Part shown: positions 10,924-49,552 of the stretch, piece after piece
How positions within the stretch are numbered: the first letter of the stretch is position 1
Layout of the letters: the number at the start of each line of letters is the position of its first letter
The notes under the pieces: model-generated
What the model was told of the DNA's origin: nothing
The model's input: only the letters and a program-made list of their open reading frames with translations
Database searches by the model: none
From: Bacteroidales bacterium
GTDB lineage: Bacteria; Bacteroidota; Bacteroidia; Bacteroidales; P3
DNA: 56,384 bases
Reading direction: 5' to 3'
NCBI GenBank assembly: GCA_017479705.1
Contig: JAFVCA010000052.1
Location: 1 to 56,384 of the forward strand
Position numbers and translations under genes: made by a program

Positions 10924-11068
10924 TTCAAACTTTTTTTATCGAATATGCCGCCGCAAAATCATATTTTCTTCATTTCTGAAGTATTTGTGATGGACGGGTG
11001 CCTAATGGGTTGGCTTGCTTTCGGGTAATCTATCCTCCAAAGTCAGGAATAGGAGCTGAAGCATCCGT

Positions 11069-11707: not shown

Positions 11708-11734
11708 GGCTGGGGGTGTTTCCTTTTGAATGTG

Positions 11735-11742
11735 CAAAGATA
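11735..11742 (-). promoter_or_regulatory. -7 box of rex
   Basis: TATCTTTG on the minus strand, exact for the Bacteroidetes -7 consensus, 27 bases before the rex ATG, which leaves a leader of about 20 bases. No matching -33 element is seen. Confidence 0.5.
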
Positions 11743-11954
11743 CATCTTTTTTTTCTGTCAGTAATAAAAAAGTTGCCGCTATCCCTCTGCTGAGGGGGAC
11801 AAATGCGCGGGGCAGACCCTTTTTTCCTCCCCTGTCGCTCCAATACTTCTGCACCCATTGTCCTTCATTACCGCTACATTTTCCCTTTCTGGTTGGGGGA
11901 ACTGAGATGTCCTGTGTGGGATGACGATTGCAGAAGGAGTGGGCGTGCGGTGGA

Positions 11955-11996
11955 ATAAAAAAGGTGCCACAACCGTTTGGGAAGGCTGTGGCACCT
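11955..11996 (-). terminator. Terminator at the end of the polysaccharide operon
   Basis: Stem AGGTGCCACA (11962-11971) with TGTGGCACCT (11987-11996) is followed on the minus strand by TTTTTTATTCC. It lies 25 bases beyond the aminotransferase stop and marks the 3-prime end of the long minus-strand polysaccharide operon. Confidence 0.88.
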
Positions 11997-12021
11997 ATGG
12001 TGTTCAGGCATTGCTGTTTGT

Positions 12022-13152: not shown

Positions 13153-13161
13153 AACGGGTGT

Positions 13162-15687: not shown

Positions 15688-15721
15688 AATATAAAGGTGT
15701 ATTATTTATGTTATGCGAATG

Positions 15722-16507: not shown

Positions 16508-16581
16508 TGTTTATTTTGTTATAACGTGTGTGTTGGTATTATTATTGTATCATTGAAAATTAAAATTTAGGGGAGAGGCTG

Positions 16582-30510: not shown

Positions 30511-31328
30511 AGTTTTCTTTTCTCGATTTTGAAGAGAACCCGCTCTATCAGTTGGACGATGCGGAAGGCCAAAGGGTGGCGGTGCAGGCGGCGCATAAAG
30601 ATGACGTCGTCGGCAAAAGCGTCGTAGTCCGCCAGCACCAGCGGAGGCAGCGTGGCTTGCAGCACGTCGCGTTTCTCCCGCGCAATGAGGGCGCGGTTTC
30701 TGCCGTCGCCCTCGCTGATGCCCGTCATATCGAAATAGACGGTGTCAACGTCGACGTGCAGTGGCTGTATTTGGCCAAGGGCTACGACTTTCATGAACCA
30801 TGCCCAGTCCGAGCAGATACGCAGGGTTTCATCGTACATCCCGAAACGGTCAAAGAGCTCCCGGCGGATGCAGGTACCGACGTGGTCCAGCGTGCCGCGA
30901 TAGAAACTGAACATAGTGAACCGTGCGTGGCTTACGCGGTTCCGCTGTGTGCGTCCGTCGGGCCAGATGTTGATGGTGGTGCCGTAAAGGATGGGGGGAT
31001 TGCCGTGCTGTTCCAATTGCACAAGCAGCTGCTGCAGCACAGAGGCCCCCGTGAGCCAGTCGCCGGAATTGAGCATCATCACATACTCCCCTTTGGCCAT
31101 GCGGATGCCTTTGTTCATGCCGTTGTAGATGCCGCTGTCGGGTTCAGAGACCCATCGGAGGGCGGGATGTTGGCGGTATTTGCCGATGGTTTCTAAACTG
31201 CCATCGGTGCTGGCACCATCCACGACGATGATTTCGAAGTCGGTGGCGGTCTGAGTGGCGATGCTGGCAAGGGTTTTTTCCAGCCCTTGGGCATTGTCCT
31301 TGTTTACGGTTACGATGGAGAGTTTCAT
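30507..31328 (-). CDS. GT2-family glycosyltransferase (WcaA/WcaE-like)
   Basis: The 273-residue GT-A enzyme starts KLSIVTVNKDNAQGLEKTLASIATQ, with IIVVDGASTDGS near 34 and EPDSGIYNGMNKGIRMAKGEYVMMLNSGDWL near 63-92. The ExDxGIYdAMNKG motif is typical of colanic-acid WcaE-type transferases. It overlaps both neighbours by 4 bases, so three genes (30.5-32.4 kb) form a coupled block. Confidence 0.9.
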   Translation of the reverse strand: MKLSIVTVNKDNAQGLEKTLASIATQTATDFEIIVVDGASTDGSLETIGKYRQHPALRWVSEPDSGIYNGMNKGIRMAKGEYVMMLNSGDWLTGASVLQQLLVQLEQHGNPPILYGTTINIWPDGRTQRNRVSHARFTMFSFYRGTLDHVGTCIRRELFDRFGMYDETLRICSDWAWFMKVVALGQIQPLHVDVDTVYFDMTGISEGDGRNRALIAREKRDVLQATLPPLVLADYDAFADDVIFMRRLHRHPLAFRIVQLIERVLFKIEKRKL

Positions 31329-32440
31329 GGTTGGGATTGGATGATGTGGCCGAGGCGGTCGGAGGTGATGAATTCGCTGTCAGGCCAGAGGCGGAGGATT
31401 TGGCTGAGTAGTTGCCGGAGGGCGGGGAGGTTGCGGTCGGTGTTCCGTTTGTCGATGGAGCCGATGTAGTTGACGCGGTGGGAGCAGATGTTGGCCGCTT
31501 TGCCCCAGCGGAAGGCTATCTTTATGTGGCGGAGGCATTCGCCCACGTTGTCCGCATCGGGTTTCAGCGAGGGCTCAAAGAAGCAGTTCCGCATCAGGTA
31601 GGGCATCCCGTGGGGGCTTCTGGTCCCTTGGAAGCAGCGCCGCTTCAGGATAGTTCCTTGGTCGTCGTCAATAGGGATTTTTTGGCACACGGTGCCTTGC
31701 AGGTATTTTACCCCCGCCGCTATGAGGTGTGGCTCGATGGCTGGGTTCCACTCGTAGGTGGGGGCAATGAAGCTCTCGGATCGGTAGCCGAACAGAGAAC
31801 CGAAAAGGTCTGCCCCTTGGCGGATGATGTCCCCGTATGCCTCAATGTCGGCGGGCAGACTTGAATTGAAGGCTCCTAAGTAGTATTGCTTGATGGTGGG
31901 TGCGGAATCCTGCGTCAGCCCGAAGGTACCCAATTGGAAGGCAAGCAGCGTGGCCGGCTCGGCGGCACGGAGGGCGGCGAGCCATTTCTTGACATTGAGG
32001 TGTTCCCTGCCATGAAGTTGGGGGTGGAAGAGTTTTGAGTCCATGCCTTGCTGCCAGAGGGCGAAGGCACCGGCGTGGCGCGGGCTCTTGGCGAGGGTGG
32101 CGGTGAAAGGCTCGTAGTGGTAGGTTTCGAAGTCGCTGGCCGCTATCTTTTCGAAGTCGGGATTAGCAGTGACAGTGTTGGCGGTGATGACTGCGGGATT
32201 GCCTTTGCAGTCTTTGACGGAGTTGAGCACTTCGAACAGGTTGCTCAGGTCGTCGGCGGTGGCGAGGTTGTCGTATTGGCAGTAGGGGTCGCGGTCCACC
32301 CGCACGCCGTGGGCAAGGAAACGGTTATAGACCTCGGCAGAAGGCATTCGGATGCTTCCCCAGTCGTCGGATTCTATCACGATGAGATGCCTTCGGGTGC
32401 GCCAGCCGGGGATATTGTAGAAGTCTTTACGGGTGAGCAT
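31325..32440 (-). CDS. Divergent polysaccharide deacetylase-like protein
   Basis: The 371-residue protein has HLIVIESDDWGSIRMPS near residue 18, resembling the NodB metal aspartate pair, FHPQLHGREHLNVKKWL near 136 with potential zinc histidines, ESFIAPTYEWNP near 215, and NICSHRVNYIGSI near 327. This layout is a variant of the CE4 barrel seen in Bacteroidetes glycan loci. No signal peptide. Its substrate is unknown. It is translationally coupled to the downstream GT2. Confidence 0.7.
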   Translation of the reverse strand: MLTRKDFYNIPGWRTRRHLIVIESDDWGSIRMPSAEVYNRFLAHGVRVDRDPYCQYDNLATADDLSNLFEVLNSVKDCKGNPAVITANTVTANPDFEKIAASDFETYHYEPFTATLAKSPRHAGAFALWQQGMDSKLFHPQLHGREHLNVKKWLAALRAAEPATLLAFQLGTFGLTQDSAPTIKQYYLGAFNSSLPADIEAYGDIIRQGADLFGSLFGYRSESFIAPTYEWNPAIEPHLIAAGVKYLQGTVCQKIPIDDDQGTILKRRCFQGTRSPHGMPYLMRNCFFEPSLKPDADNVGECLRHIKIAFRWGKAANICSHRVNYIGSIDKRNTDRNLPALRQLLSQILRLWPDSEFITSDRLGHIIQSQP

Positions 32441-32509: not shown

Positions 32510-33271
32510 TCAAAAAGATGGGCTGTCGACGCATTTTCGGTCAATCCCGTTGATGTATCTGTAGTTTGACCTTCCGTCGCTCAGCACGGGCGTGACGCCC
32601 AACATTTTCAACCACTGCTGTGTAGATGGGTTGAAACGCCCCCAGGGGTAGGCGAAGTATGGAATAAAGGCTGGATGCTTTTCCAACAGCTTTTTGCTCT
32701 CCACTATCGAGGTGACGAACTGCTGTCGGGTCATCGTGGAGTGGTCGACGTGTTCAAACCCGTGCATCCCGATGGTAACTACTGGCGAGACGATTTGTTC
32801 CAGTTCTCCTTGGGTGATGTATTCAGGTTTTTCTGTATAATGGTCTCTCTTGCTTACACCGTCCAAATATTTGGCATTGAGGAACAAGGTGATGGGGATG
32901 TTTTCGGTCTCGAGGTATGGCAGGATGGAGAGCACGGTTCGCATCCCGTCGTCGCAGGTGAGCACAGCATACCTCTTTGAGCGGAACAGGTCGGTCTTCA
33001 GTTTATGGTGGGCTTCCGGCAGCGTGATGAAGGTGTAGCGGCGTTTGAGGGCGGCTATGCGCTCTTTGAAGTCCGCCGTCGAGCTCCAGTCCCCTCTCAG
33101 GCATTGGGAGGGGTCAAAACTGTCCGAGACGGCATGGAACACAAACACTTCAATGGGGCAAACACCAAAATGGTTCGCAAGGCGTTTGAGCCTTTTCGTT
33201 ATTTTCTTGATGTAGCGATTGGGGTTCACGGCAGGGGGATTGATGTCAAACAAAGCAGTCGCCGTCCCCAC
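32510..33271 (-). CDS. NodB-type polysaccharide deacetylase
   Basis: The 253-residue protein carries YAVLTCDDGMRTVLSILPYLE near 101 (CE4 aspartates, here CDDG), TIGMHGFEHVDHSTM near 166 with the HxxxH zinc pair, and PYFAYPWGRFNP near 204. The N-terminal 60 residues hold EVFVFHAVSD, as in WbmS/PgaB-like deacetylases. It has no signal peptide. The start is uncertain: GTG 33271 overlaps the GNAT gene by 26 bases, while a TTG at 33253 is the next choice. Confidence 0.8.
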   Translation of the reverse strand: MGTATALFDINPPAVNPNRYIKKITKRLKRLANHFGVCPIEVFVFHAVSDSFDPSQCLRGDWSSTADFKERIAALKRRYTFITLPEAHHKLKTDLFRSKRYAVLTCDDGMRTVLSILPYLETENIPITLFLNAKYLDGVSKRDHYTEKPEYITQGELEQIVSPVVTIGMHGFEHVDHSTMTRQQFVTSIVESKKLLEKHPAFIPYFAYPWGRFNPSTQQWLKMLGVTPVLSDGRSNYRYINGIDRKCVDSPSF

Positions 33272-34316
33272 CCTGTGAAATGGGGTCTGCGGGCAGGGCG
33301 AATTGTGAGGGGTACGAGAATGAAATCTGGTCGATGCGGTATTTGGAGAACACCCTGTTGTGCAACAGGTAGTCGCTCAGGTTGGGGTCGCGGGTGGTGA
33401 AACAGGGGTTGCCAAGGTGCAGGATATGCTCCAAAATGGAATTAAAGACCTCACCGCTGTATTCCCCGTCATAGTAAAGATACTTGATGGACAAGTCCTG
33501 TTCTGAGTTTCGGATGATGTAGTAGCCGACCATCTCCCCGCCGACCATCACCTTTACGCCTTTCATCCAGTAGAGGGCATCGCAGTCGCCGAAAGTGTTC
33601 GCGTCGGAGGTTCTGTCGCACAAGGGGGTGCGGTGCTTGAAGGGGTATTGGAGTATCCAATTGAGCGTCTCCCGGGTACGGGAGATAAGGTCCTTCGATG
33701 CGTGCGGGGTTATATAATGGTAGGTGGTTTGGTCAATGAAGTCCTGATACTGGATGGTGTATCTTGATTTTTGGATTTTTTCTTTGAGCAGGGGGTTGAT
33801 GTTGCGCAGCAGGGTCTTGGCTCCCTCCCGGTAGGACACCATCTTGCCGACGGGTCCTTGAGGGTAGACCCGGGTGCCGAACCGATACTCTTTAAGGTAG
33901 GTCAGGCGGTGTCCCAGGTTGTTGAAGATGGCCACAGTCTCCGGGGCTCCCATCGTGTCGAGGCAGTTCTCCGTCCCAAACTGTTCGCCGAGCGTCCGCA
34001 TCAGCACTAACGGGAACCCTTTTCCTCTGTGCGCGGGCTCGCACCACAGGGTGCTGAACCACCAGTATTTGTTCCCGTGTATGAGTTCGGGGAAGGCAGC
34101 GGTGTAGGCTATGGCTTCACCCCCCGTAAAGACCGCAGCCACCAACGGGTCGTCTGGGGTGGTGTAGGGGTTGTTAATCAGAGCCCGCGCCCTTGTCGTA
34201 GAGATGATTTTCGCGTCGAGCCCTGCAGCGGACTTGCCACTGTCGAGCCATTGGCTCACCTCTGCCGCGGTGAAGGTTTTGATTTCTATGTCGCTGTAAT
34301 CAATCATTCGCTGCAA
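33246..34316 (-). CDS. Two-lobed GNAT-family acyltransferase, paralogue A
   Basis: The 356-residue protein has a GNAT fold in its first half: YWWFSTLWCEPAHRGKGFPLVLMRTL near 82-107, with the RGKG pyrophosphate-binding loop for CoA or phosphopantetheine. The second half (about 185-340) has a similar secondary pattern (ALYWMKGVKVMVGGEMVGYYIIR, LSIKYLYYDGEY) and is probably a second, degenerate GNAT lobe. It ends QGGDGDCFV. A paralogue with the same layout and ending lies at 35285-36328. It overlaps the acyl carrier protein gene by 8-17 bases, which suggests that the acyl donor is the carrier protein. The acceptor would be an amino sugar or amino acid. ATG 34307 is an alternative start. Confidence 0.75.
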   Translation of the reverse strand: MQRMIDYSDIEIKTFTAAEVSQWLDSGKSAAGLDAKIISTTRARALINNPYTTPDDPLVAAVFTGGEAIAYTAAFPELIHGNKYWWFSTLWCEPAHRGKGFPLVLMRTLGEQFGTENCLDTMGAPETVAIFNNLGHRLTYLKEYRFGTRVYPQGPVGKMVSYREGAKTLLRNINPLLKEKIQKSRYTIQYQDFIDQTTYHYITPHASKDLISRTRETLNWILQYPFKHRTPLCDRTSDANTFGDCDALYWMKGVKVMVGGEMVGYYIIRNSEQDLSIKYLYYDGEYSGEVFNSILEHILHLGNPCFTTRDPNLSDYLLHNRVFSKYRIDQISFSYPSQFALPADPISQGGDGDCFV

Positions 34317-34560
34317 GATGCTGCATGGTGATGTCTATGATGGCTCCCATGGTTTGCATTTTGATGATTTCGAGTATCTTGAACTTGATGTTGAAGGTGG
34401 TTTCGATCTCGGTGAGCAGTTGGGTGTAGGTGAGTGAGGTCCAGGCAGCGAGTTGGTCGGGGCCGAGAGAGTCCGTGATTTGCAGGGTCGGGTCGCCGAA
34501 TACCCGTTGTGCCACCGTCTGTATGGTCTGGCTGATGTCGTTACGTGAAAGGTTGTTCAT
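34300..34560 (-). CDS. Stand-alone acyl/peptidyl carrier protein
   Basis: The 86-residue protein fits the four-helix carrier fold. The core WTSLTYTQLLTEIETTFNIKF corresponds to the usual DSL-containing helix, with Ser42 as the expected phosphopantetheine site although the aspartate before it is threonine. It is a specialised carrier, not the fatty-acid AcpP, which would carry DSLD. Its partners are probably the adenylating enzyme at 36.5-38.0 kb, which would load it, and the GNAT proteins on either side, which would unload it. No phosphopantetheinyl transferase is in the window. Confidence 0.82.
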   Translation of the reverse strand: MNNLSRNDISQTIQTVAQRVFGDPTLQITDSLGPDQLAAWTSLTYTQLLTEIETTFNIKFKILEIIKMQTMGAIIDITMQHLAAND

Positions 34561-34598
34561 TCTGAATGTGTTAAGCGGAGAACCTCCGCAGGTATTAA

Positions 34599-35183
34599 TT
34601 ATTTGAGGAGTGGATTTTTGCGTATGTTGCCGGTGTTGAGGAAGTGGACGAGGTCCATCATCTCATACCACCGCAGGGCGTGGTGCAGGGGACCGTATTC
34701 GAGCAGTTCGGTAGGGTGGTAGTCCGGGTGGGTGATGGCGAATTCAGAGGGCTGGTGCGTGCCGCTGAGGGTGGTGAGAATGACCTTGTGAGGCCATTGA
34801 ATGCGGTTGAACGCGGCGGCTTGTTGCGGCGTGCAGTTGTCGCCATCCATCAGGATGACGATGTTGTCCCAGTTGACGCGCCCTTTGCGTTCCTCCCATT
34901 TTGCGGCAGCCTGCTCCTGTGTCTTGTAGTGTGAGAAATAGACAGTCACGGGGCCATAGTCCCCCTCGAGGGTGGCAACAGGGTAGTTCCATTGTGAAGG
35001 GATGAAGGTGAGGGGCAGGGAGAGGTAGTGGCGCAGGTGGTTGCAGAAGGTGAAAAATTGCTCATGGTCGCGGATGCCGCAATTGATGGTGGGGGAGAGG
35101 AATTTCAGCCCCAGATCGTGGTAGACGATGCCGCCGATGCAGGTGTTTGTGATGAGCGAGAAGTTGCGGTTGCGCAGCCGCAT
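34599..35183 (-). CDS. DUF1919 polysaccharide-locus protein
   Basis: The 194-residue protein begins MRLRNRNFSLITNTCIGGIVYHDLGLKFLSP, a clear DUF1919 opening, and continues with INCGIRDHEQFFTFCNHLRHYL and KVILTTLSGTH. Proteins of this family are found in exopolysaccharide loci and have no proven reaction; glycosyltransferase- or phosphotransferase-like roles have been suggested. ATG 35183 is preferred: codons upstream to TTG 35261 are made of the locus intergenic repeat (ACACATTCACGAAATAAAAC) and look non-coding. It lies between the two GNAT paralogues. Confidence 0.78.
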   Translation of the reverse strand: MRLRNRNFSLITNTCIGGIVYHDLGLKFLSPTINCGIRDHEQFFTFCNHLRHYLSLPLTFIPSQWNYPVATLEGDYGPVTVYFSHYKTQEQAAAKWEERKGRVNWDNIVILMDGDNCTPQQAAAFNRIQWPHKVILTTLSGTHQPSEFAITHPDYHPTELLEYGPLHHALRWYEMMDLVHFLNTGNIRKNPLLK

Positions 35184-35284
35184 GCGACTCGCCAGCCTCA
35201 AGGTGTGCACGGCTATTTTCGTGAATGTTTTATTTCGTGAATGTGTTGATGTGTTAGTCAAGTTTGAATGTGTTAAGTGGAGCG

Positions 35285-36328
35285 TTATACGAATGCGTCG
35301 CCATCGCCTCCCTGCGCTGCGGCGTGGGGAGGGAGGGGAAACGAGGTCGGGAGTGAGTAGGAGATGGGGATGGTGGTTGCTTTGCTGAAGATGCCAAGGC
35401 GGACCACGTAGTCCGAGAGATCCTTGCTGCGGGTGGTAAAACTGTGTGCTTGAAGTTGGAGGATGTGCCCGATTATAGAGCCGAAGGCCGCCTCCTTGTG
35501 TTCCGGGCAGTAGTAGAGGTATTTGATGGAGAGCTCGCTGTCGGCCTGTCGGATGATGTAGAATGCAACAGGTTTGTTGTCTCGGATGATTTTCACTCCG
35601 CTTATCCAGTATCTGCCGACGTTGTCGGGAAATGGATTGGTGGATGCAGTGCGGTCCGCAAGTGGCGCCGTGTGCAGGAAGGGGTGCTGCATGATCCAGT
35701 CCAACATTTCCGCACTCCGTGGCAGCAGGTCTTTCCCCGAATGGGTGTGGATGAGTTGTGCGGTCTCAGGGTCGATGTTGTCGACGTATTGGATTGTGTA
35801 GTCTTTGGTCTCGGGTTGTGCTTTGAGGCGTTTGCGTCTGCTGAGCGGCTTCCAGCCGCGGTGCAGACTGTAGGAGGCAATTTGTTTCAGCGTGGGGTGC
35901 TTGAAGGTGGCAAGGGTGTGCTTGTATTGCGGGAAGTAGTGGGTCTGATGGCCGAAGTATTTGAAAATCTCAATGGTCTCGTCGGCGGCCCATGAGTCTA
36001 AGCAGCGGGCTGGTGTGTAGTGCTCCATCAGCGTCCCGACGGCTATGAGTGCGTAGCCTTTCCCTCGGTGGTCGGGGTGGCACCAGAGGGTGCTGAACCA
36101 GTAGTAGAGCTCCCCGCCCACACGGTCCGGGAAGAGGGCGGTGAAGGCCACGGTCTCCCCCTCTGCAATAACGGTGGCCACAACGGGGTCGTCGGGTTTG
36201 GCGTAGGGGTTGTGTACAATGGCTCGCGCACGTGTCCGGGTGATGACGGACTCGCTGAGCCCCGACCCGTCGTCGCCCTCAAGCCATTGGCCTATCTGGC
36301 CGACGGTGAATGTCCTAATCTCTACCAA
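35285..36328 (-). CDS. Two-lobed GNAT-family acyltransferase, paralogue B
   Basis: The 347-residue paralogue of the protein at 33246-34316: YYWFSTLWCHPDHRGKGYALIAVGTL near 78-102 is the GNAT acyl-CoA loop, NVGRYWISGVKIIRDNKPVAFYIIR and LSIKYLYYCPEH mark the second lobe, and it ends QGGDGDAFV. The pair must derive from one duplication, now separated by DUF1919 and the carrier protein. Two transferases with one carrier could attach the same acyl group at two positions or act in sequence. The start appears to be TTG 36328 or GTG 36325, since MVEIRTFT aligns with the IEIKTFT of the paralogue. Confidence 0.74.
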   Translation of the reverse strand: MVEIRTFTVGQIGQWLEGDDGSGLSESVITRTRARAIVHNPYAKPDDPVVATVIAEGETVAFTALFPDRVGGELYYWFSTLWCHPDHRGKGYALIAVGTLMEHYTPARCLDSWAADETIEIFKYFGHQTHYFPQYKHTLATFKHPTLKQIASYSLHRGWKPLSRRKRLKAQPETKDYTIQYVDNIDPETAQLIHTHSGKDLLPRSAEMLDWIMQHPFLHTAPLADRTASTNPFPDNVGRYWISGVKIIRDNKPVAFYIIRQADSELSIKYLYYCPEHKEAAFGSIIGHILQLQAHSFTTRSKDLSDYVVRLGIFSKATTIPISYSLPTSFPLPPHAAAQGGDGDAFV

Positions 36329-36339
36329 TTTTGTTTCTA

Positions 36340-36460
36340 TTTAGATTCTATTTAGATTCTCCTTTGATTGTGGATGAGAAATAATGAGGAGATAAAGTAA
36401 AGGTGTTAATCCAATTGAAAGGTGAAAATCGAAAATTGAAACGGGATGCAGACATGGTTG
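36340..36460. repeat. Intergenic repeat cluster
   Basis: Starts with a tandem TTAGATTCTATTTAGATTCT, followed by GTTAATCCAATTGAAAGGTG and AAAATTGAAACGGGATGCAG, the latter closely similar to 20880-20895. No gene. Confidence 0.6.
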
Positions 36461-38005
36461 TCACCTCTCCTTTTCAATTCGTGGCAGTAACGTGTTTTTC
36501 AGGGCCGTGCGGTCTATCTTTTCCGACTTGTTGGTAGGGAAGCTCTTCAGGAAGACTATCTTGGAGGGGAGCATGTAGTGCGGCAGCCTCTCTTGGAGGT
36601 ATTGTTTCAAGGGGGTGGGGTCCGAGGTCCCGCTCTCCACGAAGAGGGCAATCTCCGTCAGGCCTGTAGGGTTTGAAAAGGCGATGGCCACCGTCCGGTA
36701 TTGGCCGGAATAGAAGACCCGTGCATGGTATTCTATCTCGCCCAGTTCCACGCGGTAGCCCTGTATCTTGGCTTGCTGGTCAATGCGTCCGTAGTAAAGG
36801 ATGTTGCCGTCCTCCAACTGTGAGCATAGGTCGCCTGTGCGGTAATAGCGGGTGCTGGGTCCGTCGAATTGCAGCTGGGTGAATGCCGCCTGGTTCCGCT
36901 CGGGGTTGTTCCAATAGCCTTGGGTGATTTGGCCGCCGGCAATGCAGAGTTCCCCCTTCTGCCCACGGGGCAGGGCATGGCCCTCCTCGTCAACGATTAC
37001 TGCATGGACATTGGCAAGGGACTTCCCGATGGCTACCACACCGTTGGCGGAAAGGTTTTCGCCGTGGCGGCTCAGGTGGTAGCACGTGCAGTAGATGGTG
37101 CCCTCCGTGGGACCGTAGAAGTCATAGATTTCTGTGTTGGGCGCACAGGTAAACCAGTCTTCTATCAGGTCTATGGGGCAGGCTTCGGCCGTCAGGATTG
37201 TGGTGCGGAGGCTCTCTGTGCGCAGCTGGTCAAAATAGGGCCTGAGGTAGGTGAGCATGGATGGAGCCATGGCGGCGGAGGTGATGCCCTGCTCCATTAG
37301 CAGCGAGACGGCGTAGACGTACTTCACCTGCCCGTAAGGGATGGTGTAGACGCACGCGCCGCGCAGCAGGGCGGTCAGGAAGGCCTGGATGCTGACGTCG
37401 AAAGTGAGGTCGAACGCCTGTAGGCAACGGTCGTCGGGTCCCATGGCAAAGCCCGTCTGCCAGAATGAGTCGATGAAGGAGGCCAGGTTGAGCCTTGAGA
37501 TGCACACGCCTTTCGGGGTTCCCGTGCTCCCTGACGTGAAGAGGATGTATGCCAAGGTGTTGTCCTCTACCTCGAGGGGTGGGAAGTCCTCCTCTGTTGT
37601 CGGCAAGTGCGTGGAGCAGAGGGTTTGCACCCCTTGGCCCCGTGCAGCGGCCACAAGCGAGTGGCCCTCGGCAGCGTGGAGCAGCAGCCCTGCGCCAGTC
37701 TGGTCTATAATGTTCAGGTTCCTCACATCAGGCTGTAGGGGGTGGAGGGGGACGTAAGCCAAGCCCTCCCACCACAGGGCGATGATGGAGGCGTAAGTGT
37801 CGATGTGGTCATTGACCAGCAGGGCCACCGTCTGCCCCATGGAGTGGAACTGGCGGACTGCCGCACGGATGGAGCGGACCCTTTCGGCAAGATGGCCGTA
37901 GGTGTAGAGCTGACCGCCGATGCAGAAGGCTGGCCGGCCGGCACTCCGTTGCATGGCCTCGCTGAGCGGGAGGATTATTTGTTGGGAGAATGTAATTGCT
38001 GGCAT
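36461..38005 (-). CDS. NRPS/DltA-like amino-acid-adenylating enzyme
   Basis: The 514-residue stand-alone adenylation domain has AMP-binding motif ILFTSGSTGTPKGV near 160, A4 AFDLTFDVS near 205, A5 YDFYGPTEGT near 302, A7 YYRTGDL near 388, A8 YYGRIDQQAKIQGYRVELGEIE near 404, and catalytic lysine in TNKSEKIDRTALK near the C-terminus. The aspartate of FDVS aligns with the A4 aspartate that binds the alpha-amino group in amino-acid-activating domains, favouring an amino acid substrate. Such enzymes form aminoacyl-AMP and load it on a carrier protein, as DltA does. ATG 38005 is preferred over an upstream start because MPAITFSQQI opens the fold; it overlaps the GT2 stop by 31 bases. Confidence 0.85.
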   Translation of the reverse strand: MPAITFSQQIILPLSEAMQRSAGRPAFCIGGQLYTYGHLAERVRSIRAAVRQFHSMGQTVALLVNDHIDTYASIIALWWEGLAYVPLHPLQPDVRNLNIIDQTGAGLLLHAAEGHSLVAAARGQGVQTLCSTHLPTTEEDFPPLEVEDNTLAYILFTSGSTGTPKGVCISRLNLASFIDSFWQTGFAMGPDDRCLQAFDLTFDVSIQAFLTALLRGACVYTIPYGQVKYVYAVSLLMEQGITSAAMAPSMLTYLRPYFDQLRTESLRTTILTAEACPIDLIEDWFTCAPNTEIYDFYGPTEGTIYCTCYHLSRHGENLSANGVVAIGKSLANVHAVIVDEEGHALPRGQKGELCIAGGQITQGYWNNPERNQAAFTQLQFDGPSTRYYRTGDLCSQLEDGNILYYGRIDQQAKIQGYRVELGEIEYHARVFYSGQYRTVAIAFSNPTGLTEIALFVESGTSDPTPLKQYLQERLPHYMLPSKIVFLKSFPTNKSEKIDRTALKNTLLPRIEKER

Positions 38006-38925
38006 TTGCGTTGCTTGATGATGAAAAGTGCGAATTTGGCGGCGGCGTGCAGGTCGTGCGATGTGAGGAGATGTTCCCAAGTCATTCTGACGGCCTTTTT
38101 CTTGTCGTGTTGGGCATAGTAGGTGATGCAGGAAGACAGGGTGTTGAGGTAATTCCTTTCGGCCAACGGAGTGCGGTTGACTTGGTAGAACTCACGGTCT
38201 ATGGTGTACGACGTTTCACAGTATTTGCCGTTGGAAATCATGCTGTTCACGCCCCCGGCGTGGTAGCGGTACACTCCGCCCACAAAGCTGAAGAGGCGGC
38301 CTTTGCCGACGGTGAGGAGGTGGTAGATTTCGTGCATGTCGCGGTAGTGCTTGTACTGCTTCTGCCACTGCGGCGTGAAGTTGCTGCGACGGAACACCAT
38401 GGTGAGCGGCTGCGTAATCCACCGCTCAAAGAACATGTCAAGGCTGATGTCCACCGCCTCCTCGCCGTGGGCGAAATAGCGGCCGCAATAGTCGCCGCTC
38501 AACGCACCGGTGTAGGTGTTGAGGTGCTGGCAACGGTGGAAACAGACGGAGTAGTCAGGGTGTGCCTCCATGAAGTCCACCTGACGTTGTAGTTTGTTCG
38601 GGTCGGTCCAGTAGTCGTCGCCTTCGCAGTAGGCTATGTATTTTCCACGCGCACGCTTGTAGTTGAACTCTATGTCCATACGGCCACCGTAGCCTTGTTG
38701 GTATTTGTTCTGCGTCTCGTAGAGGGGGAACACGATGTCAGGGTACCGCTTTTCGTATTCCCGCAGGATGGCTTCCGTGTGGTCGGTGGAGGCGTCGTCG
38801 TGAATCAGGATTTCGAAGGGAAAGGAGGTCTGTTGCATCAGGAATCCGTCAAGGCATTGGCGGATAAACTGCTCGTGGTTGTAGGTGAGGCAGCAGATGC
38901 TAACAAGGGGTGTTCGGTCACTCAT
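37975..38925 (-). CDS. GT2-family glycosyltransferase
   Basis: The 316-residue GT-A enzyme has PLVSICCLTYNHEQFIRQCLDGFLMQQT at the start, EILIHDDASTDHTEAILREYEKRYPDIVFPLYE near 38, and KYIAYCEGDDYWTDPNKL near 95 with the DDYW metal site. It belongs to the common O-antigen GT2 subfamily that starts with TYNHE. ATG 38925 overlaps the ATP-grasp stop by 8 bases; the longer open frame has poor N-terminal sequence. Confidence 0.9.
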   Translation of the reverse strand: MSDRTPLVSICCLTYNHEQFIRQCLDGFLMQQTSFPFEILIHDDASTDHTEAILREYEKRYPDIVFPLYETQNKYQQGYGGRMDIEFNYKRARGKYIAYCEGDDYWTDPNKLQRQVDFMEAHPDYSVCFHRCQHLNTYTGALSGDYCGRYFAHGEEAVDISLDMFFERWITQPLTMVFRRSNFTPQWQKQYKHYRDMHEIYHLLTVGKGRLFSFVGGVYRYHAGGVNSMISNGKYCETSYTIDREFYQVNRTPLAERNYLNTLSSCITYYAQHDKKKAVRMTWEHLLTSHDLHAAAKFALFIIKQRKCQQLHSPNK

Positions 38926-40147
38926 ATTCGATGACGAAATGGTTGTCGACTTGTTCTTCCAACAGGGCCATGGCTTCAGGGCTGTCGGTACAGGCAATGT
39001 AGTAGCCTATGCGGTTGCCGCCGTCGGTGGGGCGTTGGATGCGGTCGCCCTCTTTGAAGTTGAGCTGCCAGTGGAGGATGGCTTTTTGAGCGTCGAGGAA
39101 GTCACGGCCTTTGATGCTTTTTACAATTCCGCCCTCTTCTGTGGTGTCGAAGAACTTGACCATGGCCACGCGGTTGTTCCGCAGGGTCTGCGGGTCGATG
39201 ACGGTGGTGACGGGGTTGCCGACAAACATGTCGATGAGTATTCGGTAGTTGTCGATGCCGGTGAGGGCGGGAACGACATGGGAGGAGAGGAGTCCTCCAC
39301 CTCCGCGGGCTCCTATTTCCAACAGGTAGAACTCGCCGTTTTCGTAGCGGTATTCGGCATGGGTGAATCCGAAGGGCAGCCCGGAGAGTTCTACAAACTG
39401 GTTGTTCACGGCCCGTAGGCGGTCATAGTCGTAGCGGGGGTTGGAGTAGGAGAAATAGAGGTAGTTGTCCAAGTTCTTGTTGTAGGAGAACTGCTGCTTT
39501 TCCGATATGGCGAGGCAGACGTGGCCTTGAGGCAGACGGATGCCGTCCACGGAGAATTCGGCTCCAGAGATGAATTGTTCGCAGATCACTGCGTGGCGGT
39601 GGTGGGAGAAGGAGATGGATTGGTCAAAGAGGGCTACCAGCTGCTCCTCACTTTGGATGGTGAATACGCCACGGCTGCTGTTGGCGTCGATGGGTTTGAT
39701 GACTATCTTTGGAGCAGCGTCTGTATTCGTGGCCTTCAACCCGTTATAATACGCGACGGCCTCTGCGACGGTTTCGCATACCTTGTATTTTGGGCAGGGG
39801 AGCCCGTGGTCACGGCAGAAGTCGCGCATCAGCGATTTGTCAGTATAGAGGCGAGCCATCTCTTCGGTCTGGGTGGGAAGCCCCATCCGCGAGGAGACAT
39901 AGGCAAGGGTTGGGGTCGCAATGTCGCATTCGTCTGACATGACGGCTTTGACGTTGAGCTTTTTTGCCGCGGCAAGCACGGCCTCGCAGTCCAGAATGTC
40001 GGAGTAGACAATCTCGTCGGCATATTTGAATGCAGGGGCGTCGGGGTATGGGTGAACTACGGCCACACGGTATCCCAGCTCCTTGATTCGTTTAATCAAA
40101 GGAATCTGCCACACCGTCCCCGGCAGCACCATGATACAGTTGTCCAT
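38918..40147 (-). CDS. ATP-grasp ligase (carbamoyl-phosphate-synthase/PurK-like)
   Basis: The 409-residue ligase has a preATP-grasp Rossmann domain (ELGYRVAVVHPYPDAPAFKYADE), then ATP-grasp parts: KIVIKPIDANSSRGVF near 147, AVICEQFISGAEFSVDGI near 187, and EFYLLEIGARGGGGLLSSHVVPALTGIDNY near 274 with the Mg-binding Glu. This subfamily forms amide or peptide bonds between amino acids or hydroxy acids. It ends with a C-terminal domain of about 80 residues. It sits between a GT2 and an unrecognised gene. It could make the dipeptide or amide that decorates the glycan. Substrates are unknown. Confidence 0.85.
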   Translation of the reverse strand: MDNCIMVLPGTVWQIPLIKRIKELGYRVAVVHPYPDAPAFKYADEIVYSDILDCEAVLAAAKKLNVKAVMSDECDIATPTLAYVSSRMGLPTQTEEMARLYTDKSLMRDFCRDHGLPCPKYKVCETVAEAVAYYNGLKATNTDAAPKIVIKPIDANSSRGVFTIQSEEQLVALFDQSISFSHHRHAVICEQFISGAEFSVDGIRLPQGHVCLAISEKQQFSYNKNLDNYLYFSYSNPRYDYDRLRAVNNQFVELSGLPFGFTHAEYRYENGEFYLLEIGARGGGGLLSSHVVPALTGIDNYRILIDMFVGNPVTTVIDPQTLRNNRVAMVKFFDTTEEGGIVKSIKGRDFLDAQKAILHWQLNFKEGDRIQRPTDGGNRIGYYIACTDSPEAMALLEEQVDNHFVIEYE

Positions 40148-40150
40148 CTA

Positions 40151-41173
40151 TCAGATTATTTTGTTTATTCTTTGCAGATTAATGGTATCCTCTGTGGTGA
40201 GGTTTTTCTTGAAAGTCCCGTCGCCGTTGGCGATTCCGAGGATGGTGTGTGCGTCGAGGTAGTTGTCCACAACGATGTCGCCCGGATGGCCGAGGTATCC
40301 CCCGCTGACGACGGGGATGCCCCCGACAGTTGTGCGCCCAAGGCGCGAGGAGATGAGTTGGGTGGTTTCCATGAGGTTGACTACGGTGCCGGAGATGCCG
40401 GCACGGTCGTCAGAACGATAAATGTGTGCGCCGTTTCCGCGCTGGTTCTCGATGAACGATTGCGAGAAATTCTGGGTTCCGATGTCGTAAATGTATTTGA
40501 AACGTATGGCGGAGAGTTGGTCCAGCCAAGGGGTGGTATGCTGGATTTCGCAGCCAATGAGCACGTCAAGGTTTGAGTAGGAGGTGCTGTCCACGAGGTG
40601 GATGTGTTCGGATTCTATGGTAATGGTTCCGTGGGCTATGGGGAATTGGGGATTGGGGTACTCCTCTTTCAGCAGACATACGTCTATGCCCTTGTTGATT
40701 AGTTCCAGCAGCATCTGTGTGGCCAAAGGGTTGCGGCCTGTGAGCAGACGGGTGCATTCAAAGAGGTTTTTTTCGCAGTTTGTTTTCTCTATCTCCATCA
40801 TGAATGCGATGGCTGATGAGGTCCATGTGGCATAGTCGCTGTAGTAGGCTACGGACATTCCCTTGCTCTCCGCCAGCTGTTGGGCCGCGAGGCACAGCTG
40901 CCGGCTGTTGCTGCGCTTGTTGTCTGTGTCTATCATCACGGTGTCCACAATGCCCTCGGATTCCGCAATAATATAAGGGAGGTATTGCTCGTCGCCCAAA
41001 GCGACGAAGCCGATGATGTTGGTGATGCTTTCGCGCACGGAGGGGACGCGCGGGGTTGTGTCTTCCTCGCGGGTATGTTGAAGCAGGATGAGCACGGAGC
41101 GCTTGTTGGTGATTGTAACCAGGCGTTCCATCTCATGGATCATCTGTTTGAAACTGTCTTTAAAATCGGTCAT
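40151..41173 (-). CDS. Unrecognised 340-residue protein, possibly Rossmann-like
   Basis: No family recognised. The protein has no signal peptide or membrane helix. One segment near 140, NLFECTRLLTGRNPLATQMLLELINKGIDVCLLKEE, looks like a beta-alpha-beta nucleotide-binding unit but lacks a clear GxGxxG. A second conserved-looking segment, SSRLGRTTVGGIPVVSGGYLGHPGDIVVDNYLDAHTIL, is near 278. It sits 3 bases before the ATP-grasp gene and follows the aldolase gene across a repeat-bearing gap, so a role in making the small-molecule substituent is possible. A dehydrogenase is one guess. Confidence 0.6.
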   Translation of the reverse strand: MTDFKDSFKQMIHEMERLVTITNKRSVLILLQHTREEDTTPRVPSVRESITNIIGFVALGDEQYLPYIIAESEGIVDTVMIDTDNKRSNSRQLCLAAQQLAESKGMSVAYYSDYATWTSSAIAFMMEIEKTNCEKNLFECTRLLTGRNPLATQMLLELINKGIDVCLLKEEYPNPQFPIAHGTITIESEHIHLVDSTSYSNLDVLIGCEIQHTTPWLDQLSAIRFKYIYDIGTQNFSQSFIENQRGNGAHIYRSDDRAGISGTVVNLMETTQLISSRLGRTTVGGIPVVSGGYLGHPGDIVVDNYLDAHTILGIANGDGTFKKNLTTEDTINLQRINKII

Positions 41174-41267
41174 AGCTGAAATTGGAATGCGTTAATGCGT
41201 CAGTGAATGCGTGAATGTGTGAGTTTTATAACCCGCGGTGGTGCGCCGCTTTCAATTTTTCAATTGT
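41174..41267. repeat. Intergenic repeat with GC core
   Basis: Bases 41217-41260 read GTGTGAGTTTTATAACCCGC, GGTGGTGCGCCGC and TTTCAATTTTTC, matching 27990-28032 with few changes. Preceded by GAATGCGTTAATGCGTCAGT. Confidence 0.8.
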
Positions 41268-42284
41268 TTAAAAGGTTTTGTGTGAGTAGGCTGGAGTGAA
41301 TTCAAACTTCATACCTTCTTTAAGGCGTTTGGCTGCAAACTCGAAAAGTTCCTCAGACGGGTTGATGACGTTGATTTTGCATACTTCGGCCATCAGTGAG
41401 TCGGGGTCGATGCCATATTTGTCAGAGACTTTTTCGAGCAGGGTGGTGAAGGAGTCGTGGAAGTTGACGATGCCGACATTGATTTCCCGCTTGGAACTGC
41501 CTTTGGGCATGAGGTTGCCGATAACTTCCTCAGCGGTGGTGGCTAAGGAGAGGGCGTTGCAGGTGGTAGGCATGAGGTGGGCTTTCTGGAGGATGGCTAC
41601 GAGTGACTCTAATTGGGCGTTGCCGGCTCCGCGTCCCACGCCTTTCATGGTGCCGTCGACGAAGGTGGCTCCGGCCTCGACAGCGGCAAGGCTGTTGGCA
41701 TTGGCGAGGAGGAGGTTGTTGTGGCCGTGGAATCCAACATGGATATCGTAGAACTCCTTTATGGCTTCAACGTATGCCGCCACCTGCCGAGGGAGCATGC
41801 CGCCAGCGGAGTCCACGATGTAGATGCAGTCGGCTCCGGCGTCGACTATTTTTTCAGCCATGAGGGTCAGCTGGTAGCGGCTGATGGCGTAGGTCTTCAT
41901 GACGTTGCAGCTGACGAAGAGGCCTATGGATTTGGCGTTGCGGATGTGTTTGAGGGCGGAGTCGATGTCGTTGGCGTTGGCTCCAATGCGAAGGAATCCG
42001 CCGCCGTGGTCTTTGAACCATTTCATGTCGTCCTTTGTGCCATAGAAAAAGAACATGCCCAGAAGGGAGTCTCCCTTGCATGGTAGGCAGATGTCCATAA
42101 AGTCATTGTCGGTGAATGGGAAGTCGAACTTGTGGTAGGCCCCTAAGCCGAAGTTGTTGCCAATCTCAATGTAGGGAATGCCCGCGGCGGAGAGTGTGGA
42201 GACGATTTTCCGCAGCGCGTCGGGCGTCCATTTGTTTTTGGTGACGTATCCGCCGTCGCGTATGGTGCAGTCTAATATATTCAT
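41268..42284 (-). CDS. DRE-TIM aldolase/synthase (HMGL-like, MhpE-related)
   Basis: The 338-residue TIM barrel of the HMG-CoA-lyase superfamily starts MNILDCTIRDGGYVTKNKW, with catalytic arginine and metal aspartate in the first strand, HVGFHGHNNLLLANAN near 198 with the metal histidines, and DGTMKGVGRGAGNAQLE near 224. Members include 4-hydroxy-2-oxovalerate aldolase, isopropylmalate and citramalate synthases; this one lacks the synthase regulatory domain. The usual partner acetaldehyde dehydrogenase is absent, so a dedicated role in forming or cleaving a 2-oxo acid is likely. ATG 42284 fits the barrel start; the open frame upstream overlaps the GT2 gene. Confidence 0.82.
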   Translation of the reverse strand: MNILDCTIRDGGYVTKNKWTPDALRKIVSTLSAAGIPYIEIGNNFGLGAYHKFDFPFTDNDFMDICLPCKGDSLLGMFFFYGTKDDMKWFKDHGGGFLRIGANANDIDSALKHIRNAKSIGLFVSCNVMKTYAISRYQLTLMAEKIVDAGADCIYIVDSAGGMLPRQVAAYVEAIKEFYDIHVGFHGHNNLLLANANSLAAVEAGATFVDGTMKGVGRGAGNAQLESLVAILQKAHLMPTTCNALSLATTAEEVIGNLMPKGSSKREINVGIVNFHDSFTTLLEKVSDKYGIDPDSLMAEVCKINVINPSEELFEFAAKRLKEGMKFEFTPAYSHKTF

Positions 42285-42303: not shown

Positions 42304-43350
42304 TTATTGCATGACGAGCCGATATAGTTTGTCCAAGGTCTTATCGTCTTTGTGTGAAGCACTCCTGATTTGTTTATACAGGAGGAGGATTCTTGCTATT
42401 CGAAACTTACTCCGAACTCCTTTTTGGCCGTTTGCATAGTATTTGGAGATGAACCCGTCAAATTGTTTGATATATTGAAGGGTTGTGTCTTGTAGGCGGA
42501 TTTTGCGGAGGATGGATTCCTTTGCAATGTGCACGAGGTTGAGGTTGGGTTGTGCGAGAAGGAGGTTCTTGAATTTGGGGAACAACTGGGCATGGTGGAA
42601 GGGAAGCATGGCGTAGAGCAGTTCACGGTCCCACCCTTTGTCTGAATTGCTTATGCTTGTCCCGTATTGGACCCATACGTAGTCGGCTCTGTCTATAAAA
42701 ACAACTTTGCCCAGCTGGAGGTGGTGGTATGTAATGACGGTGTCGTCATACCATTTGCCGTATTTTTCAGCGGGGTTTTCCTCAGCATTCCGCCGAATCA
42801 TGTATGTGGGGTTGACACCGATCAAATCGTTCTGAATAATAGCGGAGTAGTCAAGGACTGCACCGTCTTTCAGGATTGGGTGACGAGGCCAGGCGTAGCC
42901 GGTCTCTAATGGCGAACGGTCTTTGACTTGCCAAACCCGTTGTTGGCACATGGCACATTCGGGGTGGCTCCTCAGGGCGTTTAACTGGGTCTGGTATATG
43001 TCGTCGCTCCGCAGGTAGTCGTCGGCGTCGATGTTTACAAAGAATTCCCCCTGCGCATGCTTGTACACGGTGGCTTTGTTCCATCCGCAGCGTTCGGAGC
43101 GCGTCAAGGGGTGGCATTCGTCCGAGTTGCAGAGGATGCCGTGTATTACGGGATGTTTTTTCTCGTATTCCTCAATAATCTCCCAAGTGCCGTCGTCTGA
43201 ACGGTCGTCGGAGACGATGACTTCGTAGGGGACGTCGATTTGTTGTTTCAGAATACTGTCCAAGCATCGCGCAATGTAGTCGCGCTGGTTGTGAGAGATT
43301 ACAAGTATGCTCAGAATTATATCCTGCCCGTGCATTGTTTCTATTGCCAT
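42304..43350 (-). CDS. GT2-family glycosyltransferase
   Basis: The 348-residue GT-A enzyme has ILSILVISHNQRDYIARCLDSILKQ near 10, YEVIVSDDRSDDGTWEIIEEYEKKHPVIHGI near 40, and EFFVNIDADDYLRSDDIY near 98 with the DADD metal site. The C-terminal part is helical and basic. ATG 43350 (MAIETMHG) overlaps the ABC ATPase stop by 10 bases, indicating coupling to export genes. Thirty upstream codons of the open frame are rejected. Confidence 0.88.
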   Translation of the reverse strand: MAIETMHGQDIILSILVISHNQRDYIARCLDSILKQQIDVPYEVIVSDDRSDDGTWEIIEEYEKKHPVIHGILCNSDECHPLTRSERCGWNKATVYKHAQGEFFVNIDADDYLRSDDIYQTQLNALRSHPECAMCQQRVWQVKDRSPLETGYAWPRHPILKDGAVLDYSAIIQNDLIGVNPTYMIRRNAEENPAEKYGKWYDDTVITYHHLQLGKVVFIDRADYVWVQYGTSISNSDKGWDRELLYAMLPFHHAQLFPKFKNLLLAQPNLNLVHIAKESILRKIRLQDTTLQYIKQFDGFISKYYANGQKGVRSKFRIARILLLYKQIRSASHKDDKTLDKLYRLVMQ

Positions 43351-48847: not shown

Positions 48848-49393
48848 TTATAGTTCAATGCTGTAGTTGTTTATAACGGTTTGGGAGAGAAATCTCGATG
48901 TTGTTGCCGGAGCCGTCACGGGCTCCAGAAACTGCGGATGGATGTAGGTCGTGGCCAATGCCGCCACACCGCGGATGCTGACCACCAACCGGCGGTCCTT
49001 CTTTATCCTTACGATGTGCCCTTCCGCTCCTTTGAACGGGCCGTCGGTCACTCGCACCCGGTCGCCCCGGTGGTATTCCGGCCTGTCGTCGCCAAGATAG
49101 GTAAGCCCCTGTTTCCCTGCGCTGCACACAAACATGAAAATCTCCATTTCGTGGTTCGGAATAGGGGAGGGCTTGCGCGTCAAAGGGTCGCGGTAAATCC
49201 AGAGGCGGGAGAAGAAGTCCTGCTCAAAGTGGGCAAGGTAGTCGTCGGTTGTTTCCAAAAATACCAGTGAGGAGATTATCTCGGGGATGAAGTGCACGAC
49301 GCTGTCCGTCGCCAGCCGCTCGCGTATGGGCTGCACTCGGTTGTATTGCACCTTTGCCGCGTACCATCTTTTCTCCGTCGGTGCTGTTTCCAT
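48848..49393 (-). CDS. UpxY-like NusG-family antiterminator
   Basis: The 181-residue protein has an N-terminal NGN domain (KRWYAAKVQYNRVQPIRERL) and a KOW motif (YHRGDRVRVTDGPFKGAEGHIVRI) near 112-137. Specialised NusG paralogues of the UpxY/RfaH type prevent premature termination in the long operon they head, as shown for Bacteroides capsules. It is the first gene of this locus. ATG 49393 is preferred to the 41-codon-longer start, since the extension overlaps the leader. No UpxZ partner gene is seen. The leader from the promoter is about 200 bases. Confidence 0.88.
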   Translation of the reverse strand: METAPTEKRWYAAKVQYNRVQPIRERLATDSVVHFIPEIISSLVFLETTDDYLAHFEQDFFSRLWIYRDPLTRKPSPIPNHEMEIFMFVCSAGKQGLTYLGDDRPEYHRGDRVRVTDGPFKGAEGHIVRIKKDRRLVVSIRGVAALATTYIHPQFLEPVTAPATTSRFLSQTVINNYSIEL

Positions 49394-49552
49394 ATCTTTG
49401 TTTCGGATGCTTTTGTTTTGTCTATTTCCCCATTTTTCGGGGGACAATTTCTCCTCTCCCCCACAGGGATGTGTGAGGGCTCTGGAAGATTTGGGGCTAT
49501 CATTCTGCCCTTTCAACGCTTGTCCCTATCCAAGGACACAGGGCGTAATCCA

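What the first reader, a model, noticed from the sequence alone, without database searches (positions are those of the whole stretch)
32510..42284. Carrier-protein aminoacylation module embedded in a glycan locus
Within 10 kb of one operon lie an amino-acid-type adenylating enzyme with the A4 aspartate (36461-38005), a stand-alone carrier protein with Ser42 (34300-34560), two two-lobed GNAT proteins (33246-34316, 35285-36328), an ATP-grasp ligase (38918-40147), a DRE-TIM aldolase (41268-42284) and an unrecognised protein (40151-41173). Known parallels are DltA/DltC D-alanylation and ACP-dependent N-acylation of amino sugars. I infer that an amino acid or hydroxy acid is made, activated, loaded on the carrier and moved to a sugar by the GNATs. 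The combination with an aldolase and ATP-grasp ligase is one I do not recognise as a described system.
Basis: partly seen in the sequence, partly recalled or inferred. Interest (0 to 1): 0.82.

Follow-up and report, generated by a model that had tools for sequence, protein, structure and literature searches.

The report
Aminoacyl-carrier cassette in a glycan locus
An uncultured Bacteroidales bacterium carries a small gene cassette that probably activates an amino acid, parks it on a carrier protein and attaches it to a surface sugar, while the neighbouring aldolase, dehydrogenase-like and ATP-grasp genes look like a separate module.

Summary
Module 1: adenylating enzyme, carrier, GNAT. Adenylator and GNAT occur in the same 13 of 99 genus genomes, carrier alongside, and the trio recurs in 5 of 34 GNAT loci from other families. 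A4 aspartate and A10 lysine are kept in 18 of 18 adenylators, the carrier serine in 19 of 19 carriers. Module 2: aldolase, unrecognised protein, ATP-grasp. It is in 6 close loci, 2 of them without module 1; 9 of 13 module-1 genomes lack a full aldolase. The adenylator pocket reads the same with and without the aldolase, so the aldolase probably does not feed it. The unrecognised protein is probably a divergent shikimate-dehydrogenase-like protein, fused to the aldolase in a distant genome. Best reading: a DltA/DltC-like pair whose aminoacyl group goes to a sugar amine through a GNAT instead of an MBOAT; relatives G069 and G036 have MBOAT versions. Amino acid and glycan are unknown. A role in type IX linking sugars is open.

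The parts
36461..38005 (-). Module 1: stand-alone amino-acid-type adenylating enzyme (ADOM), 514 aa
   Evidence: PF00501 4e-58; TIGR01733 over cut-off; A4 Asp and A10 Lys kept in 18 of 18 aligned; pocket code DVQAITFIYK by motif mapping
34300..34560 (-). Module 1: stand-alone carrier protein, Ser42 expected to carry phosphopantetheine
   Evidence: PF00550 below cut-off; serine kept in 19 of 19 aligned carriers; overlaps the next GNAT by 17 bases
33246..34316 (-). Module 1: GNAT acyltransferase a, 356 aa; start codon uncertain
   Evidence: PF00583 just below cut-off; RGKG loop invariant in the 3 rows of A3; family in 13 of 99 genus genomes
35285..36328 (-). Module 1: GNAT acyltransferase b, 347 aa, paralogue of a (45% identical); start codon uncertain
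   Evidence: PF00583 over cut-off; A3 alignment; two copies also in G057 and G018 loci, one copy in the other cassette loci
34599..35261 (-). Optional companion of module 1: DUF1919 protein, function unknown
   Evidence: PF08942 4.1e-39; in 5 of the other 12 genus cassette loci: L016, L079, L083, L086, L087
32510..33271 (-). Polysaccharide deacetylase downstream; candidate maker of the free amine; start codon uncertain
   Evidence: PF01522 2.6e-15; 0-1 gene downstream of the trio in the 13 genus cassette loci, but also present in two loci without the cassette
41268..42284 (-). Module 2: DRE-TIM aldolase-like enzyme (ALD), 338 aa
   Evidence: PF00682; nearest solved relatives are 4-hydroxy-2-oxovalerate aldolases, but the residue aligned to their His21 is Tyr13
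40151..41173 (-). Module 2: probable divergent shikimate-dehydrogenase-like protein (UNK), 340 aa
   Evidence: distant relative L012 hits PF01488 over cut-off; profile to PDB shikimate dehydrogenase E 0.048; fused to ALD in G372
38918..40147 (-). Module 2: ATP-grasp ligase of L-amino-acid-ligase type (GRASP)
   Evidence: PF13535, PF18603 over cut-off; next to ALD-UNK in the window and 5 of 5 close loci
37975..38925 (-). GT2 glycosyltransferase between the modules, part of the backbone
   Evidence: PF00535; directly before the adenylator in the 13 genus cassette loci
42304..43338 (-). GT2 glycosyltransferase upstream of module 2; start chosen by me
   Evidence: PF00535; syntenic in L016-L020
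28050..29447 (-). Membrane protein of the locus backbone, used as control marker
   Evidence: 48 of 99 genus genomes at E<=1e-60

Best explanation
Genes 36461-38005, 34300-34560, 33246-34316 and 35285-36328 form an aminoacyl-carrier cassette. The adenylating enzyme makes an aminoacyl-adenylate from one amino acid (shown: A4 Asp and A10 Lys kept; inferred: activity; unknown: which amino acid). It loads the amino acid as a thioester on a phosphopantetheine arm at Ser42 of the carrier (inferred). One or both GNATs move it in the cytoplasm to a free amine of a sugar intermediate of the surface glycan (inferred). The amine is perhaps uncovered by the deacetylase encoded next door, since no sugar aminotransferase was found in the locus (inferred, weaker). 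It works like DltA/DltC, but with a soluble N-acyltransferase where Dlt has a membrane O-acyltransferase. The aldolase, shikimate-dehydrogenase-like protein and ATP-grasp ligase form a second, exchangeable module that makes another acid and attaches it without a carrier (inferred).
For: Adenylator (over 800 bits) and GNAT are in the identical 13 of 99 genus genomes; carrier and at least one GNAT follow the adenylator in all 13 loci, their mutual order varying. The locus backbone marker is in 48 of 99, so the cassette is an addition to a wider locus. Independent recurrence of adenylator, carrier and GNAT, at 36-41% adenylator identity, in 5 loci from four other families. Catalytic residues kept. 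Genus relatives of the adenylator (611 and 633 bits) sit with a carrier and an MBOAT in G036 and G069. A PF01522-type deacetylase lies within 3 kb of the GNAT in 26 of 34 order-level loci. No sugar aminotransferase family among 40 window proteins given to Pfam, which include 31 of the 34 locus genes. The modules separate in both directions and the adenylator pocket does not change with the aldolase.
Against: In 29 of 34 order-level loci the GNAT has no adenylator in the stretch fetched, though several contigs are short, so the GNAT family is not tied to carriers and may use CoA thioesters. One further genus GNAT copy (L081 in G037, 6.2-kb contig) has neither adenylator nor carrier on its contig. 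The 13 genomes are 13 of the 15 closest to the window by the backbone marker; within those 15 the chance that two genes miss the same two genomes is about 1 in 105, so the genus count alone is modest evidence. The window carrier scores below the Pfam cut-off. No structure could be predicted. The deacetylase is also present without the cassette. No chemistry was tested.
Confidence: 0.65

Rival explanations
1. One pathway: aldolase and unrecognised protein make an amino or hydroxy acid, the ATP-grasp enzyme processes it, the adenylator loads it and the GNATs transfer it.
For: All genes share one run; 4 of 5 aldolase genomes in the genus sample also have the cassette (hypergeometric 9e-4, not corrected for kinship). 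L088 keeps a 36-residue aldolase trace. An ATP-grasp relative lies inside the cassette in L079.
Against: Two loci have module 2 and no trace of adenylator, carrier or GNAT at E 1; 9 of 13 cassette genomes lack a full aldolase; the adenylator pocket code is the same either way.
Confidence: 0.07
2. The cassette makes the N-aminoacyl linking sugar by which type IX secretion cargo is anchored to LPS, a carrier-dependent alternative to the Wbp/Vim pathway. This is a special case of the best explanation, not exclusive of it.
For: PorU sortase over cut-off in 96 of 99 genus genomes. Known linking sugars are N-seryl, N-glycyl and N-alanyl sugars (PMC7468200, PMC11969387; passages read). In other families a FemAB-like protein lies within 4 kb of the GNAT in 18 of 34 loci and a VimE-like deacetylase within 5 kb in 9 of 34. 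VimA matches the FemAB family TIGR03019 (PMC7468200 section 20).
Against: The cassette is in only 13 of 99 genomes although nearly all have PorU; the window's own incomplete genome has only weak PorU matches. VimE-like (96 of 99) and FemAB-like (95 of 99) genes are in the genus core, all VimE-like matches below the cut-off. In G000 the single VimE-like and FemAB-like matches lie on contig C14, not in the window. Only 2 of 17 FemAB-like members match TIGR03019.
Confidence: 0.12
3. The adenylator activates a non-amino carboxylic acid (for example a hydroxy acid) and the GNATs make an N-hydroxyacyl sugar.
For: ACP-dependent N-acylation of amino sugars with hydroxy acids is known (recalled, no call).
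Against: The A4 aspartate that binds the alpha-amino group (role recalled) is kept in 18 of 18; TIGR01733 is over cut-off.
Confidence: 0.1
4. Carrier and adenylator feed a short peptide or lipid unrelated to the glycan.
For: The best-scoring solved relatives of the adenylator are mostly NRPS domains.
Against: No condensation domain among the 40 window proteins scanned; the cassette sits in the same glycan locus in all 13 genus loci.
Confidence: 0.04

Closest known systems
DltA/DltC of the D-alanylation (dlt) pathway
   Same: stand-alone adenylator plus stand-alone carrier; TIGR01734 matches at 229.7 bits
   Different: below the TIGR01734 cut-off of 559.85; no MBOAT among the window proteins scanned; GNATs instead; pocket residue T where the Dlt-like genus relatives have C
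Wbp/Vim linking-sugar pathway (VimE deacetylase, VimA aminoacyl transfer)
   Same: logic of deacetylation followed by N-aminoacylation of a sugar (PMC7468200, passages read)
   Different: no adenylator or carrier is mentioned there (terms absent from the main text); no VimE-like or FemAB-like match on the window contig
XrtA/PEP-CTERM exopolysaccharide clusters (TIGR03098 ligase, TIGR03006 deacetylase, TIGR03019 FemAB)
   Same: similar cast in some order-level clusters: deacetylase, FemAB-like, adenylator, carrier; window adenylator matches TIGR03098 at 182.7 bits
   Different: far below the TIGR03098 cut-off (592.35); TIGR03019 matched only 2 of 17 FemAB-like members
4-hydroxy-2-oxovalerate aldolase / acetaldehyde dehydrogenase pair
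   Same: ALD is homologous to the aldolase (197.6 bits); an aldolase-like half is fused to a UNK-like half in G372
   Different: below the 286-bit cut-off, residue aligned to His21 is Tyr; the partner is shikimate-dehydrogenase-like

Membership tests
Dlt D-alanylation system | DltA over the equivalog cut-off | tested here: not met
   229.7 bits against 559.85
Dlt D-alanylation system | carrier with phosphopantetheine serine | tested here: met
   Ser42; 19 of 19 aligned; the modification itself was not testable
Dlt D-alanylation system | MBOAT acyltransferase DltB in the operon | tested here: not met
   no PF03062 among 40 window proteins; present in the G069 and G036 relatives
Wbp/Vim linking-sugar pathway | VimE-family deacetylase in the locus | tested here: not met
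   the only NF053580 match in G000 is on contig C14, below cut-off; none on the window contig C19; none for 32510-33271 or 31325-32440
Wbp/Vim linking-sugar pathway | aminoacyl sugar linked to cargo C terminus | not testable with these tools
   needs mass spectrometry
amino acid adenylation domain (TIGR01733) | score over cut-off and A4 aspartate | tested here: met
   321.6 against 317.4; Asp in 18 of 18
non-ribosomal peptide synthetase | condensation domain | tested here: not met
   no such family among 40 window proteins
4-hydroxy-2-oxovalerate aldolase | TIGR03217 over cut-off | tested here: not met
   197.6 against 286
4-hydroxy-2-oxovalerate aldolase | catalytic His21 | tested here: not met
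   aligned residue is Tyr in all 7 rows of A4 against His in the 4 solved relatives shown; the role of His21 is recalled
4-hydroxy-2-oxovalerate aldolase | metal-binding Asp and two His | tested here: met
   D10, H186, H188 invariant in A4; the role is recalled
shikimate dehydrogenase superfamily (UNK) | profile match | tested here: inconclusive
   none directly; through relative L012 PF01488 2.5e-7 and PDB profile E 0.048
L-amino-acid ligase (GRASP) | ATP-grasp plus LAL_C2 domain | tested here: met
   PF13535 46.3 and PF18603 45.4 bits, both over cut-off

The most novel reading that the evidence does not exclude
The adenylator-carrier-GNAT cassette is a carrier-dependent route to N-aminoacyl linking sugars for type IX secretion cargo. 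It would be a counterpart for species such as Prevotella intermedia, whose N-alanyl-deoxyhexose linker has no known pathway according to PMC11969387.
Probability: 0.12. Interest if true: 0.85.

Novelty: new variant of a known kind. Interest (0 to 1): 0.5.

Why it matters
N-aminoacylated sugars occur in O-polysaccharides and anchor secreted proteins in Bacteroidota, yet PMC11969387 (passages read) calls the pathway that puts alanine on a deoxyhexose unknown. A compact, conserved adenylator-carrier-GNAT cassette in a glycan locus gives a concrete candidate that can be tested in vitro. The same adenylator family with an MBOAT or with a GNAT in one genus would show how one activation pair is rewired from exported esters to cytoplasmic amides.

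Tried and rejected
Rejected: one pathway for all seven genes (see the module separation). Rejected: UNK as orphan or chance ORF; it is conserved at 57-85% in 5 further loci. Borderline UNK hits in G528 and G530 were set aside; the G528 hit lies in a reading frame that looks like a peptidase (by eye), and G530 was not examined. UNK in plasmids: no match. GNAT in viral contigs: no relative. Structure of UNK or GNAT: not possible, prediction switched off. C-terminal half of the GNATs: no Pfam match in 4 of 4. PorU as discriminator for a type IX link: useless, nearly universal. Literature: ten searches; among the titles and abstract openings listed I saw no paper on an adenylator-carrier-GNAT cassette for glycan aminoacylation. 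Five of the ten listed only a part of their hits (20 of 159, 20 of 981, 15 of 63, 15 of 35, 15 of 21), and the library lacks most subscription papers. Alignment A2 contained a wrong row and was not used. The specificity code could not be assigned to an amino acid; the position mapping rests on motifs and on recalled PheA numbering.
Full report
What is there. The finding lies in what I took as a same-strand run of 34 genes with gaps from -31 to +231 bases. By Pfam the run holds a bacterial sugar transferase, an ABC exporter with a Wzt C-domain, epimerase/dehydratase genes that I read as GDP-fucose and amino-sugar synthesis (by eye), glycosyltransferases, a Wza/Wzc-type exporter pair and deacetylases. 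Three neighbours were not named: a GT2 (37975-38925), a DUF1919 gene (34599-35261) and a polysaccharide deacetylase (32510-33271).

Two modules. UNK (the unrecognised protein) was searched in 148 relatives: 5 matched, window included. A pattern scan of one genome for each of 84,980 species gave 6 loci, five of them close. tblastn of all locus genes against these shows the order GT2-ALD-UNK-GRASP-GT2 in the window and all five close loci. Adenylator, carrier and GNAT follow in the window, L016, L017 and L018. In L019 and L020 none of the three is found at E 1 in the 21 kb held, and the second GT2 is followed by the deacetylase. In 99 genomes of the genus the aldolase (over 600 bits) is in 5, of which 4 have the cassette; 9 of 13 cassette genomes lack it. 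tblastn on the nine corresponding loci finds one trace, 36 residues at 50% in L088, perhaps a remnant. Where the aldolase is missing, an ATP-grasp relative stands before the GT2 in L083 and L087 (44% identical) and L086 (31%); in L079 a 32% relative lies inside the cassette, between DUF1919 and the carrier.

Cassette co-occurrence. A GNAT profile found 13 of 99 genus genomes. An adenylator profile at E<=1e-60 found the same 13 at over 800 bits, two more at 611 and 633 bits (G036, G069), and domains inside frames of 1395-2419 residues; weaker matches were not listed. In all 13 the carrier and at least one GNAT follow the adenylator, with 0-1 gene before the deacetylase; the order of carrier and GNAT varies. 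If genomes were independent the chance of identical sets would be 1.6e-16. They are not: the backbone marker is in 48 of 99 genomes, and the 13 are among the 15 closest to the window by that marker, G028 and G047 being the two without the cassette; within 15 the figure is about 1 in 105. One extra GNAT copy in G037, on a 6.2-kb contig (L081), has neither adenylator nor carrier.

Independent recurrence. In 247 genomes of the order, 35 including the own genome have the GNAT; I fetched all 34 others. Adenylator, carrier and GNAT stand together in 5 of 34 (L097, L100, L111, L119, L121; four families), and carrier with GNAT in one more (L122). With queries taken from L100 and L119, a deacetylase of about 330 aa lies within 3 kb of the GNAT in 26 of 34, a FemAB-like protein within 4 kb in 18 and a VimE-like deacetylase within 5 kb in 9, one of those weak. 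So elsewhere the GNAT mostly lacks an adenylator; short contigs (for example L089, L094, L101, L106, L113, L120) limit this count.

Chemistry readable from sequence. A4 Asp and A10 Lys are kept in 18 of 18 adenylators and the carrier serine in 19 of 19 carriers. Mapped by motifs to recalled PheA numbering, the pocket reads DVQAITFIYK in 8 of 13 genus enzymes, 3 with and 5 without the aldolase; the other 5 differ at one or two positions. Outside the genus it reads like DAHKLGVINK, and in G069 and G036 DLMLLCVIFK and DLFLLCVIFK. Those two sit in operons with a carrier and an MBOAT protein (PF03062 9.9e-19 and 5e-15), as in the dlt system; the next gene looks DltD-like by eye but has no Pfam match. 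I recall, from no call, that a cysteine in the DltA pocket matters for D-alanine; it was not in the paper passages read (PMC13231372). The three pockets suggest three substrates; none could be assigned.

The acceptor. No sugar aminotransferase family appeared among 40 window proteins given to Pfam, 31 of the 34 locus genes included; the other three were read by eye. With the deacetylase neighbours this favours an amine made by de-N-acetylation. It is not proof: the window deacetylase also occurs without the cassette and is only distantly similar to the one in other families (31% over 68 residues).

Module 2. ALD is closest to solved 4-hydroxy-2-oxovalerate aldolases, but scores 197.6 against a cut-off of 286, and the residue aligned to their His21 is Tyr in all seven aligned sequences, while the presumed metal ligands are kept. 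UNK has no direct family match. Its relative in G144 (24%) matches shikimate dehydrogenase over the cut-off, and the family profile reaches PDB shikimate dehydrogenase at E 0.048. In G372 one 681-aa frame joins an ALD-like and a UNK-like half; an ATP-grasp protein 26% identical to GRASP is encoded 2.7 kb away. I infer that ALD and UNK act in sequence and GRASP attaches the product by ATP-driven amide formation.

Type IX link. PMC7468200 (passages and section 20 read) reports N-seryl and N-glycyl linking sugars, VimE as putative deacetylase and VimA as presumed aminoacyl transferase; the terms adenylation and acyl carrier do not occur in its main text. PMC11969387 (passages) reports an N-alanyl-deoxyhexose linker in P. 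intermedia, without VimA or VimE, and calls the alanine transfer pathway unknown. In PMC13086638 (passages) those two terms do not occur either. The genus has PorU over cut-off in 96 of 99 genomes, the window's own incomplete genome only weakly. A VimE-like gene is in 96 of 99 (none over cut-off), beside what look by eye like type IX core genes in the three loci looked at of six fetched, and a FemAB-like gene is in 95. Because these are core and the cassette is not, the cassette is unlikely to be the general linker pathway of the genus; it may be an alternative one.

Verdict. The cassette is real and conserved, and works, on present evidence, like a DltA/DltC pair feeding a GNAT. It fails two tested defining features of dlt and is not filed there. 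The larger seven-gene system is not supported.

Noticed in passing
L022:10503-12548 (G372): Single 681-aa frame joining a DRE-TIM aldolase-like half and a UNK-like half, in a locus whose other genes look like nonulosonic acid genes by eye.
   Followed up: partly
L030 (G646), 8795-16528: Aldolase next to what look by eye like acetaldehyde dehydrogenase, a thiamine-dependent enzyme and CDP-dideoxyhexose genes: possibly a branched-sugar locus.
   Followed up: no
L126, L128, L131: A VimE-like deacetylase (sub-cut-off NF053580) lies beside what look by eye like PorP, PorK, PorL genes in three genus genomes, one of them the window's own.
   Followed up: partly
L096, L102, L109, L114, L118, L119: VimE-like, FemAB-like, deacetylase and GNAT form a recurring cluster in other Bacteroidales families; function unknown.
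   Followed up: partly
L136:9212-14045 and L137:9183-14277: Dlt-like operons (adenylator, carrier, MBOAT, a DltD-looking protein without Pfam match) in a Gram-negative Bacteroidales genus.
   Followed up: partly
L088:5428-5526: 36-residue trace of the aldolase N-terminus (50% identical, E 5.6e-4) in the variable slot of a cassette locus: possible remnant of a lost module 2.
   Followed up: no
L079:9057-10319: ATP-grasp relative (32%) inside the cassette, between DUF1919 and carrier.
   Followed up: no
window 20949-22154: Octopine/nopaline dehydrogenase family gene (PF02317) in the glycan locus, overlapping a CapK-like gene by 4 bases; seen in the G057 locus but not in the G017 and G028 stretches.
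   Followed up: no
window 31325-32440: 371-aa conserved protein with no Pfam match over cut-off; looks by eye like a deacetylase.
   Followed up: no
window 48848-49516: KOW-domain, NusG/UpxY-like gene at the head of the run; possible operon-specific antiterminator.
   Followed up: no
L012:15360-16106 and L088:5989-6756: WbqC family genes (PF08889) beside the UNK relative and in the variable slot of a cassette locus.
   Followed up: no
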